NCBI GenBank assembly: GCA_015063765.1
Contig: SVTN01000004.1
Coordinates: forward strand, 1 to 33,509
Source: Oscillospiraceae bacterium
Lineage (GTDB): Bacteria > Bacillota > Clostridia > Oscillospirales > CAG-272
Reading direction: 5' to 3'
DNA: 33,509 nt
Below are positions 4,497-15,903 of the stretch, piece after piece; within the stretch, counting starts at the first letter, position 1, and the number at the start of each line of letters is the position of its first letter. A program made the position numbers and the translations under genes. Under the pieces are notes generated by a model, which was given only the letters and a program-made list of their open reading frames with translations, made no database searches and was not told the DNA's origin.

Positions 4497-5003
4497 TCAG
4501 AGCATGCGGATGGAGCTGTTTCTCCGAATAGCCCAAAGTAGAAGAGAGCCAAGCACACCCGTGGTAAGTGCCTCGCCAATGCCCACCGTCAAAACAAGAT
4601 ACATGTAAGCGTCGGGCACCCCGTAAACCAAAATCAGAAGCACGGGGATGAGAAAGGCGTTGAAAAGAATATTCGGGAGCGTGACGAGGAGCGGACCCGT
4701 CTTGTATCGCAGAACACCCCGCATCATACGGCAAACGATCGCCGCCAAAAGAGTGACAAGACTGCCGAAAAGCACGTCCAGCGGATGCCCGCCGCAAATG
4801 AGGGAGGACAAAAAGCAGCCGACAAACAGTCCGGGAACCGCCGCCCCCGATACCGCAGGCAGGACGGCAAGCGCCTCGGAAAGCCGAAGCTGTATCGCAC
4901 CCTTGTCGAGCCCCAGCGCGTAAGAAACGAGCGTTAGAGCGGTGTAAAGTGCCGCGATCACAGCGGCATAGGTCATGTATTTTGTTTTTTTTGTGAAGTG
5001 CAT
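4497..5003 (-). CDS. queT: QueT-type queuosine precursor transporter
   Basis: This small membrane protein is thought to be the substrate-binding (S) component of an ECF transporter for queuosine precursors. From the ATG at 5003 it is 168 residues with five or six hydrophobic segments. Family motifs include IQLRLSEALAVLP, a proline-glycine segment AAVPGLFVGCFLSSLICGG and LDVLFGSLVTLLAA. A preQ1-like riboswitch and terminator sit directly upstream, which supports the assignment and suggests repression by preQ1. The start is uncertain: no Shine-Dalgarno site lies before 5003, and the TTG at 5036 abuts AAGGAGA and would put the terminator inside the coding region. No ECF energizing module is in the window. 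Confidence 0.88.
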   Translation of the reverse strand: MHFTKKTKYMTYAAVIAALYTALTLVSYALGLDKGAIQLRLSEALAVLPAVSGAAVPGLFVGCFLSSLICGGHPLDVLFGSLVTLLAAIVCRMMRGVLRYKTGPLLVTLPNILFNAFLIPVLLILVYGVPDAYMYLVLTVGIGEALTTGVLGSLLLWAIRRNSSIRML

Positions 5004-5009
5004 AGCAAT

Positions 5010-5034
5010 AAAAAAGGCAGGAGAAGATCCTGCC
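5010..5034 (-). terminator. Regulatory intrinsic terminator in the queT leader
   Basis: On the minus strand GGCAGGA TCTTC TCCTGCC is followed at once by TTTTTT. It lies between the aptamer and the queT ATG, with only 6 bases between the U-tract and the start codon. It therefore fits an expression-platform terminator and not the end of a gene. Confidence 0.85.
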
Positions 5035-5036
5035 AA

Positions 5037-5081
5037 TCTCCTTAGTTTTGTTTTGCGTGAGGATAGGATCTCGAACTCACG
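5037..5081 (-). promoter_or_regulatory. Candidate preQ1-I-like riboswitch aptamer upstream of queT
   Basis: Read on the minus strand, a 6-bp stem CGTGAG / CTCACG encloses a 14-base loop starting TTC. It is followed by an A-rich tail CAAAACAAAACTAAGGAG. The layout of stem, GUUC start of loop, A-rich tail and terminal ACUAAGG matches the preQ1-I class. The loop interior differs from the usual UAGCUACACC, so this is a variant or divergent member. The loop segment AGATCCT can pair with AGGATCT in the terminator, giving a plausible antiterminator. The context (QueT) supports preQ1 as ligand. The class is inferred by eye. Confidence 0.65.
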
Positions 5082-5108
5082 GTATTTTAAACAGTTTTTT
5101 CGGAAAGA

Positions 5109-5134
5109 GAGGCTGTCGCTTACGCGACAGCCTC
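5109..5134 (-). terminator. Hairpin terminator after the lipoprotein gene
   Basis: An 11-bp perfect stem GAGGCTGTCGC / GCGACAGCCTC with a 4-base loop lies 15 bases past the stop. The downstream tract TCTTTCC is a weak U-tract, so some read-through into queT is possible. Confidence 0.75.
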
Positions 5135-5148
5135 AATAAAATTAGGGG

Positions 5149-7701
5149 TTAGATGAGGGGGTTTACAGTGAAATCCGTCTCATAGGTAACTGCTGCGATG
5201 TAGTCTGCAACAGTCTCTGCAGCATCGTTGACGATCTTCTTGTTGTAGTTGAGGATCTCAACGAAGTAGAACTTCTCGTTCTCAGCAGTGATGGTAACCT
5301 GCTCTTCCTTCACCGTAACGGTAGCGGGAACAGTGTAGGTGTAGTTGTTGCTGATGTAGAGAATCATATCATCCTTAAACGCCTTAAGGTCATCACGGAA
5401 GCCCTGAGGAAGCTCACGATCAGCCTTAGCGGTTTCGTCGCGGAGAATCCAAGCAGCGGAGATGGTCTTGTCGCTCTCAACGTTTTTCTCATCTACATAA
5501 GCAACCAGCTCGGTGTACTGCTCCATGTAAACAACCAGCTTAGCCTCGTCGGTGATGACGTCAGTGTAAGCAGCGTTGCCGGCATTCTCAATTGCAGCGT
5601 TAGCCTTTGCGAAATCAAGGTATGCATCGTAAGCAGCCTTCAGAAGTCCGCCGTCCTTGAAGTCCTCAACAACGATGTTAACAACGTTGTCACCGATCAG
5701 CTCCTTATAGGTGTTGATTGCAGCGTTTGCCTTGGTTGCAAGCTCCTTAAGGTTAGCCATGGTAGCTTCAGCAGCCTCAAGTCTGGTCTTGTAAACATCT
5801 TCGCCGCCAACGAGGAAGAGCTCGTTGTAAAGCTCGGTGTAGTTCTCTTCTGCACCGTATGCAGCCTTGAATGCCTCGTAAAGACCTCTTGCGGTCGTGA
5901 TCTCTTCAACGGAGTTCACATCAGCAGTCAAGGAGTAGAATACGTTGCCCTCGTCCAGCTTGTCGTTGTCGATAGCAACCTTAACCTGCTCAGCAAATCT
6001 TACCTGAGAAGCCTTGATCAGCTTGTCGATGTTGGGGATGAAGTACTTAACAACGTAAGCCTTGTCAACGTCATATGCCGTCCAAGTCTGGTCGATGTTG
6101 TTCCACTTCTCAGCATCCTTGTCATAGCCGTCGGGCGTGTAGATAACAGCATCAAAATCAAGGTCGTAGTTAGCAACGATGACCTTGTCGCCGTCACCGG
6201 TCATGCTGAAGACACTGTTCGCATCGTTCCAGGTCTTGATAGCAGTCCAAGCAGCCTGAATTGCGAGGTCCTGAGCGTCGCCTGCAACACCGGTAGAGGT
6301 CTCTGCAGCAGCATCCTCGATCAGAAGGATGATGTTCTGTGCATCCTTACGGATCTGGTTCAGAGCATCGTGCTTGTTGTAAATTCTCTCGCCGAGAAGG
6401 TTGATGTAGTTAGCTTCATCAGGATTGCCGTCGGGCTTGCCGTACTCAGCCATGAGCTTGTAGGTACCTGCAGTGCCGAACACATCCATAGCGTCCTCGA
6501 TCAGACCGCCAACCTCATCCAAGAGAGCTTTAACCTTATCGTTGTCGGTATCAAGGATGGTGTCGTCAAAAGCGGTAAGATCAGCAAAGGTGCTGAAATC
6601 GATCTCCGCCTTATAAGCGGTAGGATAGATGGTAACCTTTTCAGCAGCGAGCATCTTCTCAACAGCTCTGTCGATATCGGTTACGAGCATGCTGCCGACA
6701 GACGCTTCGAGGTCGATCGCGCTGAGGTCGATTGCAAGCGTGATGTACTTGGTCTCGTAGGAGATCTTCTCTCTGACAACCTTGTAACCGTCCATAGCGA
6801 TCTTATAGTTGTCTTCGCCGATCTCTGCTCTTGCACCCTCAACGATCTCTTCGTACATTGCAGTCTTTGCAAGGTAATCTTCAAGCTGGTAAAGGAGGTC
6901 GATCTTGTCATAGATCTGACCCTTGTTGCCGCCCTCTTTGTCCTCGATGAGCTTCTGCTCAGCCAGCTTGTTGTCAACAGCGATCACAAACTGGAGATAG
7001 TAGTTCTCTGCCTCAGCAAGAGTGCTTGCAGCTTCAACGTTAGCCTTTGCGGTAGCCTCTGCAGTGTCGATATCCTTCTTGTACTGTGCGTACAGCTGAG
7101 CGATCTTCTTCACGAGAGCATCATCGCCGAACTTTGCAACGATGGCGTCCTTCTTAGCGATGTAATCGTCAAGATCAGCCTCGAAGTTCGAAACGAGTGC
7201 GTTGATCGCGTCAACACTCGTAGCAGCATTGATCTTGGCAGAGCAATCCTCGAGAAGGAGAGCAACACCACCGTCATTCTTGCGTGCAACAACCTTTTCG
7301 CCTGCAGCAAGCTTAGCGATCGTGTCAGCCTTGAGAGCCGCGTTGGGGTCAACGACAGTCACGGGAATGTGACCGACAACGGTAGCACCGTTCTCGGAAT
7401 AGGTCACAGTAACAGACTCCATGCCAAAGGTAAGGGGAGCGGTACCCACCATCTCGGGGGTAACGGCAACCGTTTCTTCAGCACCGTTTGCGTATGTAAC
7501 CTTTACCTGTGCACCGGTACAATCAAAGGTTTCACCGAGATTGTAAACGAGCTTAGAAGCAGTGTTTTCTACATACTCGATACCGGTAGGGGTAGCTTTA
7601 CCGCACGAAGCGAAGCAGAATACGAGCACTGCGAGGAGTGCGAGCGCAACTGCAGCATACTTAAGCTTGCGGGTTTTGCTGGTTCTTTCTTTCGTAAGCA
7701 T
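5149..7701 (-). CDS. Large helical surface lipoprotein with an Ig-like domain
   Basis: This 850-residue protein is probably exported and lipid-anchored. After MLTKERTSKTRKLK comes a hydrophobic stretch ending FCFASCGK, a plausible lipobox with the Cys as anchor. A bacterial Ig-like domain of group-3 type follows (GIEYVENTASKLVYNLGETF through HIPVTVVD). The remaining roughly 700 residues are Ala/Asp/Glu/Lys-rich and look alpha-helical, like FIVAR or spectrin-like repeats (AINALVSNFEADLDDYI, AEAENYYLQFVIA). No enzymatic motif or sortase signal was seen. The ATG at 7701 has GGAGG 6 bases upstream; the ORF-track start at 7746 does not. It has its own promoter. A scaffold or adhesin role is only a guess. 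Confidence 0.75.
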   Translation of the reverse strand: MLTKERTSKTRKLKYAAVALALLAVLVFCFASCGKATPTGIEYVENTASKLVYNLGETFDCTGAQVKVTYANGAEETVAVTPEMVGTAPLTFGMESVTVTYSENGATVVGHIPVTVVDPNAALKADTIAKLAAGEKVVARKNDGGVALLLEDCSAKINAATSVDAINALVSNFEADLDDYIAKKDAIVAKFGDDALVKKIAQLYAQYKKDIDTAEATAKANVEAASTLAEAENYYLQFVIAVDNKLAEQKLIEDKEGGNKGQIYDKIDLLYQLEDYLAKTAMYEEIVEGARAEIGEDNYKIAMDGYKVVREKISYETKYITLAIDLSAIDLEASVGSMLVTDIDRAVEKMLAAEKVTIYPTAYKAEIDFSTFADLTAFDDTILDTDNDKVKALLDEVGGLIEDAMDVFGTAGTYKLMAEYGKPDGNPDEANYINLLGERIYNKHDALNQIRKDAQNIILLIEDAAAETSTGVAGDAQDLAIQAAWTAIKTWNDANSVFSMTGDGDKVIVANYDLDFDAVIYTPDGYDKDAEKWNNIDQTWTAYDVDKAYVVKYFIPNIDKLIKASQVRFAEQVKVAIDNDKLDEGNVFYSLTADVNSVEEITTARGLYEAFKAAYGAEENYTELYNELFLVGGEDVYKTRLEAAEATMANLKELATKANAAINTYKELIGDNVVNIVVEDFKDGGLLKAAYDAYLDFAKANAAIENAGNAAYTDVITDEAKLVVYMEQYTELVAYVDEKNVESDKTISAAWILRDETAKADRELPQGFRDDLKAFKDDMILYISNNYTYTVPATVTVKEEQVTITAENEKFYFVEILNYNKKIVNDAAETVADYIAAVTYETDFTVNPLI

Positions 7702-7737
7702 AATTGCCTCCATGTAAAATATAGATTTGATACCTGT

Positions 7738-7766
7738 ATTGTACACGATATCATTGAAATATGCAA
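7738..7766 (-). promoter_or_regulatory. Sigma-A promoter for the lipoprotein gene (minus strand)
   Basis: TTGCAT (7761-7766) and TACAAT (7738-7743) have a 17-base spacer. The block GATATCGTGTACAAT resembles the promoter at 4428-4456. Confidence 0.8.
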
Positions 7767-12893: not shown

Positions 12894-15809
12894 TCAGATC
12901 TCAAACTCACGCTTTTCATAGGATGCAGTGCCGATGAGAGCCGCCGTTTGCTGGGGCTGCTCGGGCAGTACCGCACCGAGAACCTCAAACGCCGCATCCT
13001 CATCGCCTGCAAGGATGAAGGTTCCGAGAGCACTTGCGCCAAAGACGAGGAATCCGTCCTCTACAGAGGCAAGCTCAATTTCGGTCAACTCTTCTCCCTC
13101 TACCTTGTAAAGCTTGAAGGTTTCAGCAGACATTTGCGCAGCCGACTTGTTCAAAGCGATCTTAATGGTAAGACCGCCGGGAAGCGCGATCTCGCTGCCC
13201 GCAATGTCTACAACAGAAGAAATGGTCACGACCTGCAGAGGAATGTAACCTCTCTTGTAGTCGAGCTCCTTATAATCGGCAACCTTGCCGAATTCTGCCT
13301 CTACGCGGCTACCCGCATAGAAGGTAAAGCTACCGCCGCTGATCAAAACGTTACCCGTCTTTTCCATAACGGCAGAGGTGGTATACGCCTCTACTCTACG
13401 ACCGCAATCCAGGCAGGTACCCTCCAAGATACCCGATCTGTCAGCCGTTGCAGAGCGGACGACGCTTGCGTGGGTCAAATCGATAATGTGGTCACCCGAT
13501 GCAGGCGCAACGACAGCGGAGCATCTTGCGCAGGACTGACCCAAGCCGCAGGTTGCGGCAGTTTTCACTACAGAATGTCCGAGCGCATACTTTCCAATGT
13601 AGCCGCATTCAACACAGACGCTGGGGTTAATGCAGTCAGACACAGGAACCTTATCGTTTCCGGGTGCATGACGGTCATAGATATGCTCGCCTGTTGCGGG
13701 AGCACCTTCAATACCGCAGTCCAAGCAAACCTGTGGGCTTCCGCAGGTTGCGGGATCGCCCCAAGTATGTCCCTTTGCTTTTCTGATCACCTTTCTGCAA
13801 TCCAAGCAGTACTGCGTTCTCGTACAGGTTGCGGGAAGGCCGTATCTGTGACGCTTGGTAGGAGCAACCTCACGGTCGCACTTCTCACACTTGATACCCT
13901 CGCGGCAAGCAAAGTCGATTTCGGGAAGCTCGTGTTCCACATCGTGTGCATGCTCGTCGCCGCAGGCTGCGCAGGTATATTCAAGGCAGGGTCTTTCGGG
14001 ATCCGCGACCGAGCCTTCACCCTCAGCGGGACGCGTATGGGCTACGCCTGGCGTCGGAGGAACCGTTTCGCCACAAGTCTGGCACAGCTGCTCACCGCAC
14101 GCCTTTGCAAAGTCGATCTTATGATCCATCGTGTGCAGGACCAGCTCACCGCAGTATTCGCAGTTATAATCCATGCAAGCATAGATCGCTTGGCTGTGCT
14201 TTGCGGGATCCTCGGGGATCTCAGCATTCTCTTCGAGAAGCAGATTACAGATGGAGCAAAGCTTATCGCCGACACCGGTTGCCGAGCAGGTCGGTGCTTT
14301 GTCGGCATACGCCTTATAAGCAGGCTTTACACCGTGGTCGCAGTTGATAACGCCAAGGTCGGTTTCAAACCATTCCACATACTTTTCAGCGCCGTCGGCT
14401 TGGCCGTCGATCCAACCGTTGAGAGCAGTCAAAAGATCGGTCGGGGCGTCCGCTTTGGCAGTAAAGGTGTACGGAAGGGTTGCTTCATACCAACCTCTAC
14501 CTCCACAGTACTCACAGCTTCTGTCATTGTTGGGGTGTCTTGCACCGCCGGTAATAGGGCAGTCAAATCTACCTGTACCGCCGGCAACCGAGCCAAGCAC
14601 ATAGGTGGTCACGTCGCCCTCGGTCTTCGCCTCGAACGCATACACATGCACAGTAGTGCCCGTAGCAACGTGAATATGCGGCTTTCCGAGTGCATCTGCG
14701 CTCGTGCCGTCCAGCTGAGGATCGCGCAGGGCATACGAATCCTTGACCGTGCCCAAATTATTACCGGCAAGCAAGCCGGCAACACCGGTCTTTGTCGCCA
14801 TGGTTGCCGCGGAGGAGCAGTTTTCTACCGTCGCATTCACACCAACGTATCCGGCGATACCGCCGAGGAAGTCGCCGTCATGAAACTCCGTTGCGTTTTT
14901 GCTGATCAGGGATGCGGAGGAATAGCAGTTCTTCACCGTGGCATTGTTGTCAAGCTTTGCAACGATACCGCCAAGGTAAGCCGCCGCCGTATGCGTATAT
15001 GTACCGCCCGCAACACAGTTGCTGATCTCGGTGTTGTCCGTAGCATAGCCGACAATACCTGCCGCGCTGCCTCGGGTCGCATTGATCATAACATTGACCT
15101 TACAGCGGTCGATCACGCTGTTGTGCGCAGAGCCGAGAAGTCCGCCCGCCGCAGTAAAGCCGGTCGAAAAGCCGGACATCTGGTAAGAAGCAGTTTCGCC
15201 AATCACAGCGCAGTTCGTTACCGTCGCGCCGGTCGCCGCGGAAGCAAGCACGCCGAAATAAGGACCTGCAACGCCCTGTACGCTCTTTACGCCAAGGGTC
15301 AGATTCTTAACCGTAGCACCGTTGCCGAGCAAAGCAAAGAAGCCGAGGTTTTGCGTATTCGCACCGGAGGAAACGTAGGTGCCGCCCTCCGTGTAATATC
15401 TATCAGTAAAGATGAGCCCCGAGATCGCCTTTCCGTTACCGTCAAAGGTACCGAGGAAGGGAACGGCGTCCGCCATGCTTCCGTTGTAAACACCACCGAT
15501 CGGGTTGAAGTTCGTGTTGTTCGCATTCTCCAGCACCTCAAGCACGATGCCCGTATCGCTGTCAATGCTGCTATCCAGCTTAAAGGTAATGCCCTGCGTC
15601 ACGCCGCCCTTGCTGACGTAAGCAGAAAACGCCTTCAGCTCGGTAGCATCCGCGATGGTGACGGTATCCCCTGCCACAGGCGTTTTGGTGCCCGCAGCAA
15701 CATCCGTCATCGTTATGGCTTCCTCAGCGCCTACACCAAAGACAAAGACGCAGGTGAGGAGCATCGCGACTGCCAGAAGCAAGCTCAAAAATAAAAGCTT
15801 CTTTTTCAT
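12894..15809 (-). CDS. Large secreted protein with GLUG-like and CxxC repeats
   Basis: This 971-residue protein has an N-terminal signal peptide (MKKKLLFLSLLLAVAMLL, cleavage near VGAEE). Residues about 70-380 carry GLUG-type repeats (GIVGYATDNTEISNCVA, LGGIVAKLDNNATVKNCYS, LGGIAGYVGVNATVENCSS), which predict a beta-helix. Next, about 400 residues hold at least 11 CxxC pairs, most preceded by another Cys (CTRTQYCLDC, CGSPQVCLDC, CINPSVCVEC), alternating with GH motifs. They resemble small zinc ribbons. The C-terminal 150 residues are beta-rich. No anchor is seen. Function is unknown; surface binding is a guess. The ATG at 15809 has AGGAG 7 bases upstream; the ORF-track start at 15884 is not used. 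Own promoter and terminator. Confidence 0.8.
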   Translation of the reverse strand: MKKKLLFLSLLLAVAMLLTCVFVFGVGAEEAITMTDVAAGTKTPVAGDTVTIADATELKAFSAYVSKGGVTQGITFKLDSSIDSDTGIVLEVLENANNTNFNPIGGVYNGSMADAVPFLGTFDGNGKAISGLIFTDRYYTEGGTYVSSGANTQNLGFFALLGNGATVKNLTLGVKSVQGVAGPYFGVLASAATGATVTNCAVIGETASYQMSGFSTGFTAAGGLLGSAHNSVIDRCKVNVMINATRGSAAGIVGYATDNTEISNCVAGGTYTHTAAAYLGGIVAKLDNNATVKNCYSSASLISKNATEFHDGDFLGGIAGYVGVNATVENCSSAATMATKTGVAGLLAGNNLGTVKDSYALRDPQLDGTSADALGKPHIHVATGTTVHVYAFEAKTEGDVTTYVLGSVAGGTGRFDCPITGGARHPNNDRSCEYCGGRGWYEATLPYTFTAKADAPTDLLTALNGWIDGQADGAEKYVEWFETDLGVINCDHGVKPAYKAYADKAPTCSATGVGDKLCSICNLLLEENAEIPEDPAKHSQAIYACMDYNCEYCGELVLHTMDHKIDFAKACGEQLCQTCGETVPPTPGVAHTRPAEGEGSVADPERPCLEYTCAACGDEHAHDVEHELPEIDFACREGIKCEKCDREVAPTKRHRYGLPATCTRTQYCLDCRKVIRKAKGHTWGDPATCGSPQVCLDCGIEGAPATGEHIYDRHAPGNDKVPVSDCINPSVCVECGYIGKYALGHSVVKTAATCGLGQSCARCSAVVAPASGDHIIDLTHASVVRSATADRSGILEGTCLDCGRRVEAYTTSAVMEKTGNVLISGGSFTFYAGSRVEAEFGKVADYKELDYKRGYIPLQVVTISSVVDIAGSEIALPGGLTIKIALNKSAAQMSAETFKLYKVEGEELTEIELASVEDGFLVFGASALGTFILAGDEDAAFEVLGAVLPEQPQQTAALIGTASYEKREFEI

Positions 15810-15841
15810 GATGGTTCTCCTGTTTCTCATTTTGTTAACTT

Positions 15842-15859
15842 CCCCCGATAAAATGGGGG
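15842..15859 (-). other. Leader stem-loop before the CxxC-repeat gene
   Basis: CCCCC ATTTTATC GGGGG forms a 5-bp GC stem with an 8-base loop about 9 bases from the predicted transcript 5' end. It resembles the leader hairpins at 4405 and 10023. Confidence 0.45.
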
Positions 15860-15874
15860 CATCTTCCTGAATAC

Positions 15875-15903
15875 ATTGTACCACAACTCGCCTCGTTTGT
15901 CAA
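15875..15903 (-). promoter_or_regulatory. Sigma-A promoter for the CxxC-repeat gene (minus strand)
   Basis: Perfect TTGACA (15898-15903), a 17-base spacer ending TGG, and TACAAT (15875-15880) form one of the strongest promoters in the window. Confidence 0.92.

What the first reader, a model, noticed from the sequence alone, without database searches (positions are those of the whole stretch)
5010..5081. Variant preQ1-like riboswitch with a visible antiterminator pairing before queT
Seen: the minus-strand leader has a 6-bp stem, a 14-base loop beginning UUC, an A-rich tail ending ACUAAGGAG and, 3 bases later, a terminator. Established: preQ1-I aptamers have this tail and loop start, and QueT-type genes are typical targets. 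New: the loop interior (GAGAUCCUAUC) is not the usual one. Its AGAUCCU (5065-5071) is fully complementary to AGGAUCU in the terminator stem (5025-5031), with an extra G-U pair possible. The same loop UCCU can pair with AGGA in the tail. This suggests a switch in which the loop chooses between a pseudoknot and an antiterminator. That mechanism is an inference.
Basis: partly seen in the sequence, partly recalled or inferred. Interest (0 to 1): 0.7.

Follow-up and report, generated by a model that had tools for sequence, protein, structure and literature searches.

The report
preQ1 riboswitch with terminator before queT
A short RNA switch that senses the vitamin-like compound preQ1 sits in front of the gene for a preQ1 importer in an uncultured gut or rumen bacterium; it is a slightly unusual member of a known riboswitch family and most likely stops transcription of the importer when preQ1 is plentiful.

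Summary
The element is a class I, type I preQ1 (preQ1-I) riboswitch. RF00522 scores 27.8 bits, below Rfam's 39-bit cut-off, but it is the only credible match in the genome (E 1e-3). A model built from 18 relatives, without the window or its sister, finds it at 48.8 bits, E 1e-12. All ligand-pocket residues reported for type I are present, and the next gene is QueT. The loop is 14 nt, against 12 nt in most relatives; only one sister (G019, an Oscillospiraceae MAG) shares it.

The proposed loop:terminator antiterminator (AGAUCCU/AGGAUCU) is weakly supported here. Its chance probability is 0.02-0.09, and the sister has the same loop but not the pairing. A different antiterminator is in both: the aptamer tail AGGAGAUU pairs with GAUCUUCU (window), and GGAGGUU with AGCCUUC (sister), including one compensatory change. 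That is the known B. subtilis logic.

Others use the tail instead.

Verdict: a new member of a known kind, with mildly new expression-platform details. Ligand binding and switching are untested.

The parts
5056..5081 (-). P1 hairpin of the preQ1-I type I aptamer: stem 5081-5076 / 5061-5056, 14-nt loop 5075-5062 with UU after the 5' strand and UC (specificity C5062) before the 3' strand
   Evidence: P1 covaries in relatives (99.3% of cells paired, 27 cells changed on both sides against 9.1 in shuffles)
5038..5055 (-). A-rich loop L3 and 3' tail ACUAAGGAG (P2 strand, and SD-like AAGGAG)
   Evidence: invariant AAACAAAACUA in all 24 aligned aptamers
5035..5042 (-). 5' strand of the tail antiterminator, AGGAGAUU
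   Evidence: co-transcriptional minimum-energy folding, lengths 61-66; inferred function
5022..5029 (-). 3' strand of the tail antiterminator, GAUCUUCU (end of the terminator's 5' arm, its apical loop and the first base of its 3' arm)
   Evidence: sister G019 keeps the hairpin with one both-sides change
5016..5034 (-). intrinsic terminator hairpin GGCAGGAUCUUCUCCUGCC, followed by U6 at 5015-5010
   Evidence: -11.2 kcal/mol alone
   Evidence: complementarity real, minimum-energy only at transcript lengths 58-60, marginal by chance tests, absent in G019
4497..5003 (-). queT, ECF-type preQ1 transporter component, start AUG 5003
   Evidence: PF06177 E 2.9e-34

Best explanation
It is a class I type I preQ1 riboswitch that turns the preQ1 importer gene queT off by transcription attenuation. 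When preQ1 is low, the aptamer's 3' tail (AGGAGAUU) pairs with the pyrimidine-rich stretch around the terminator's apical loop (GAUCUUCU). This antiterminator can form about five nucleotides before the terminator hairpin can be completed, so RNA polymerase reads through. When preQ1 binds, the tail is held in the aptamer pseudoknot, the antiterminator cannot form, the terminator folds and transcription stops before queT. Shown by computation: the aptamer's identity, P1 covariation, pocket residues, terminator, gene target, and the tail hairpin in both species. Inferred: ligand binding, the OFF direction, and kinetic competition.
For: Aptamer. Pocket residues of type I (G5, U6, U7, C8, A12, U16, C17, A30, C31, U32 in the Carnobacterium structure, PMC8752633) are all present when the loop is counted from both ends. 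Terminator. Tail hairpin: minimum-energy at lengths 61-66 in the window (-13.3 to -13.7 kcal/mol including P1) and at 57-65 in G019; one A-U to G-C change on both sides; G019's terminator with the window's tail falls to -2.4 from -7.0 kcal/mol. Tail antiterminators of the same logic occur in other families of the order, with tail base N of ACUANGG matched in the terminator loop (A-U, C-G, G-C, U-A). It is the published B. subtilis logic: the antiterminator needs the tail CUAA free (PMC3444477). Salvage context: TGT in 22 of 22 good genomes of the genus, QueA in the window's genome, only weak QueC matches.
Against: Only two sequences carry this platform, so the tail hairpin rests on one compensatory change; alone it is not significant (0.07-0.09 window, 0.08-0.16 G019). 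The tail hairpin would also cover the SD-like AAGGAG, the only SD-like sequence before queT. Most relatives in the genus look translational.
Confidence: 0.55

Rival explanations
1. Same riboswitch and terminator, but the antiterminator is the first reader's: the aptamer loop AGAUCCU pairs with the terminator's 5' arm AGGAUCU, either opening P1 or as a second H-type pseudoknot with P1 intact.
For: 7 Watson-Crick pairs plus G-U; minimum-energy at transcript lengths 58-60; chance 0.02-0.09; loop-based antiterminators recur in the order, 22 of 52 leaders against 3.0 expected, 11 of 26 genera against 2.8, with matching arms for loop variants (GAGGG/CCCUC in L227; GAGGAAGG/CCUUCCUC in G004).
Against: G019 has the identical loop and no such pairing. 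In the window it uses the loop's middle, not its last five bases as in the recurrent design; the complement of the last five, GAUAG, is absent. If P1 must open, it costs a 6-bp stem.
Confidence: 0.22
2. Control is mainly translational, as in most relatives of the genus: preQ1 hides the tail SD AAGGAG, and the hairpin between SD and AUG is a spacer that brings them together rather than a terminator. Dual control is a milder form.
For: In the translational relatives AGGAG lies 4-10 nt from the AUG. The window, G019 and G004 have no SD within 20 nt of the AUG, and their tail AGGAG is 34, 33 and 56 nt away but 15, 15 and 14 nt if the hairpin is left out. In G004 the hairpin is not directly followed by U's.
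Against: In the window and G019 the stem is followed at once by 6-7 U's, a textbook terminator. Spacing of 14-15 nt is still longer than usual.
Confidence: 0.18
3. A decayed or non-switching relic of the aptamer, with an ordinary attenuator behind it.
For: Score below Rfam's cut-off; the 2-nt loop insertion is found in only two genomes.
Against: All pocket residues, P1 and the tail are intact in two species whose terminator stems have diverged.
Confidence: 0.04

Closest known systems
preQ1 class I type I riboswitch (Carnobacterium antarcticum, Haemophilus influenzae, Neisseria gonorrhoeae; PMC8752633, PMC11625349)
   Same: UU after the 5' P1 strand, UC before the 3' strand, ACUA tail, all alpha- and beta-site residues; controls preQ1 transport genes
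   Different: Loop 2 nt longer; followed by an intrinsic terminator, whereas the Carnobacterium example acts on translation
Bacillus subtilis queC preQ1-I type II riboswitch (PMC3444477, PMC3905878)
   Same: Transcription attenuation in which the 3' tail is either in the pseudoknot or in the antiterminator
   Different: Type II (AC before the 3' P1 strand), one ligand, controls queCDEF and not queT
Fusobacterium nucleatum preQ1-I transcriptional riboswitch (Rieder 2010)
   Same: Terminator/antiterminator competition, kinetic control proposed (as summarised in PMC3280964)
   Different: Which strands form its antiterminator could not be read: the paper is not held

Membership tests
preQ1 class I riboswitch (RF00522) | match to the Rfam covariance model at or above the gathering score (39 bits) | tested here: not met
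   27.8 bits. No relative of 98 passes either, while B. subtilis does: the cut-off excludes this lineage, so it is a database threshold rather than a structural feature
preQ1 class I riboswitch (RF00522) | P1 hairpin plus A-rich L3 and conserved tail, with P1 covariation | tested here: met
preQ1 class I riboswitch (RF00522) | P2 pseudoknot between loop and tail | tested here: inconclusive
   Loop UCCU can pair with AGGA. In CCAUC-loop relatives loop base 10 and tail base 34 pair in 53 of 96, against 39.7 +/- 4.1 in shuffles that ignore relatedness; in the window they are A and A
preQ1-I type I | UU after the 5' P1 strand, UC before the 3' strand, C31 in the tail (ACUA) | tested here: met
   U5075 U5074; U5063 C5062; A5046 C5045 U5044 A5043
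preQ1-I type I | two stacked preQ1 bound cooperatively | not testable with these tools
   needs ITC or a structure
preQ1-I type II / type III | AC before the 3' P1 strand | tested here: not met
   UC in the window and in the aligned relatives
preQ1 class II / class III riboswitches | HLout pseudoknot with their own Rfam models | tested here: not met
   No match to any other preQ1 family on this stretch even at E 10
transcription-attenuating riboswitch | intrinsic terminator plus a mutually exclusive antiterminator | tested here: met
   terminator and two candidate antiterminators, by folding only; switching itself not testable here

The most novel reading that the evidence does not exclude
In this bacterial order, type I preQ1-I aptamers have repeatedly made their own loop the antiterminator strand, so that one short loop chooses between ligand pseudoknot and antiterminator. 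The window is a lineage in which a 2-nt loop insertion and the terminator arm co-evolved (AGAUCCU/AGGAUCU), possibly alongside a tail antiterminator.
Probability: 0.25. Interest if true: 0.5.

Novelty: new member of a known kind. Interest (0 to 1): 0.32.

Why it matters
Rfam's cut-off misses this lineage: none of 98 relatives passes, although a model from relatives finds 57 of 69 genomes of the genus and 191 of 394 of the order (E up to 0.01). The aligned leaders show one tiny aptamer with three exchangeable expression platforms: SD occlusion, tail antiterminator, loop antiterminator. That makes a good natural series for asking how riboswitches change from translational to transcriptional control.

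Tried and rejected
(1) Classes II and III: no match. (2) Chance: rejected for the aptamer, not rejected for either antiterminator taken alone. (3) Hairpin as the upstream gene's terminator: that gene has its own 11-bp hairpin at 5134-5109. (4) Named relatives with the 14-nt loop in GTDB: of 107 pattern matches only one lies in an aptamer, Oscillospiraceae MAG SIG648, whose leader and contig length are those of G019; the rest are chance. (5) UUG 5036 as queT start: only 1 nt after AAGGAG, rejected; AUG 5003 fits the length of relatives' N-termini. (6) McCown 2014, Rieder 2010 and Schroeder 2023 (PMC10018353) are not held, so whether loop antiterminators or L3 hairpins were described there is unknown to me. 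(7) QueC matches in the genus are weak (at most 31 bits) and probably other ATPases of related fold (inference). (8) No PDB relative of this QueT by sequence. (10) A general test for tail pairing gave no signal for the window itself (p 0.5), because the stretch tested is short and pyrimidine-rich, so any shuffle of it pairs with AGGAG.

Full report
What is there. On the minus strand, upstream of a QueT gene (PF06177, E 2.9e-34), the sequence holds a 6-bp hairpin with a 14-nt loop, an A-rich tail ending in ACUAAGGAG, and, three bases on, a 7-bp terminator with U6.

Is it a preQ1 riboswitch? No Rfam family reaches its gathering score in the window, but RF00522 matches 5036-5086 at 27.8 bits. In the whole genome this is the only credible hit (E 9.6e-4; next 15.8 bits). 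In 98 relatives RF00522 gives sub-threshold hits in 32 genomes, often just before queT. Aligned leaders of the genus mostly read GGUGAGUUCGNRACCWUCCUCACC...AAACAAAACUA...GG. A model from 24 aptamers (R1) finds 57 of 69 genomes of the genus and 191 of 394 of the order at E up to 0.01. A model without the window and its sister (R2) gives the window 48.8 bits, E 1.1e-12 (calibration is short, so the E-value is rough). P1 shows strong covariation. The residues that line the two ligand sites of the type I structure (PMC8752633; PMC11625349) are all present. So it belongs to preQ1-I type I; only the Rfam score cut-off is not met, and that fails for all 98 relatives searched.

What is unusual. 167 of 181 related loops are 12 nt. 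The window and G019 (Oscillospiraceae MAG SIG648) have 14 nt: two extra bases between the invariant A at loop position 7 and the UC that carries the specificity cytosine. The pocket residues are untouched. The insertion lets the loop's UCCU face the tail's AGGA; whether that pairing forms together with the type I P2 seen in the crystal structure is unknown.

Which antiterminator? These are minimum-energy structures without pseudoknots or kinetics. G019 has the identical loop, but its terminator arm no longer pairs with it. It keeps the tail hairpin (GGAGGUU/AGCCUUC), with one pair changed on both sides (A-U to G-C). Taken alone, neither pairing is strongly significant: loop 0.02-0.09, tail 0.07-0.16. 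The sister comparison decides for the tail, with modest weight because there are only two sequences. Tail-based antitermination is the published logic of the B. subtilis switch, whose antiterminator needs the CUAA of the tail to be free (PMC3444477), and tail sequestration upon binding is the general description of the class (PMC2258182).

The order as a whole. Among 52 leaders with an intergenic terminator, 22 carry the reverse complement of the loop's last five bases at the terminator's 5' arm (3.0 expected from shuffles; 11 of 26 genera against 2.8; permuted control motifs 3.9% against 42%; 5 of 339 windows in other leaders). Loop variants have matching arms (GAGGG for CCCUC in L227; GAAGG for CCUUC in G004). 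Another set instead has the complement of the tail ACUANGGG in the terminator's apical loop, with N matched in all four letters. The window best fits the tail design but cannot exclude the loop design.

Biology. The genus has TGT (22 of 22 good genomes), the window's genome has QueA, and QueC matches are weak throughout. This fits bacteria that import preQ1 through QueT and finish queuosine from there. Shutting QueT off when preQ1 is plentiful is the expected direction; this is inference.

A loose end. The window, G019 and G004 have no SD within 20 nt of the AUG. The tail AGGAG is 33-56 nt away, or 14-15 nt if the intervening hairpin is left out, although the three hairpins differ in sequence and length; usual spacing in the translational relatives is 4-10. 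After readthrough the hairpin may refold, free the tail SD and bring it near the start codon. This is untested, and it keeps translational or dual control alive as a rival.

Noticed in passing
L049, L052, L054, L057, L085, L258, L263 and others (not the window): 44 of 149 distinct type I aptamers of the order carry a hairpin inserted between P1 and the A-rich L3; sequences and lengths differ while the fold is kept. Whether this accessory stem has been described is unknown to me.
   Followed up: partly
L180, L216, L029, L010, L227, L030 and others: Loop-based antiterminator design: complement of the aptamer loop's last five bases at the base of the terminator 5' arm, 22 of 52 leaders against 3.0 expected.
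   Followed up: yes
L160, L171, L164, L262, L252, L258, L198, L156: Tail-based design: the terminator's apical loop carries the complement of the tail ACUANGGG, with N covarying.
   Followed up: yes
window 5001-5043; L095; L093: The only SD-like sequence lies before the hairpin; distance to the AUG is 14-15 nt when the hairpin is left out, in three genomes with different hairpins.
   Followed up: partly
L010, L015, L154 (Vut_1/YhhQ type) and L014, L017, L161, L164 (radical SAM): In relatives the same aptamer precedes queuosine-precursor transporters of the Vut_1 family and an unnamed radical SAM protein weakly like RaSEA. Profile searches: L010 and L154 for Vut_1, L017 for RaSEA; the others are by eye from the translations.
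   Followed up: partly
window 5109-5134 (-) and about 5084-5090 (-): The upstream gene ends in its own 11-bp hairpin; between it and P1 lies an AT-rich TTTAAAATA, a possible -10 box, so the aptamer would sit at the very 5' end of the queT transcript.
   Followed up: no
window 5149-7746 (-) and 12894-15884 (-): The 865-aa ORF has no Pfam or NCBIfam match. The 996-aa ORF lies over a 948-aa open frame on the opposite strand, 12948-15794, most likely a by-product of codon use.
   Followed up: no
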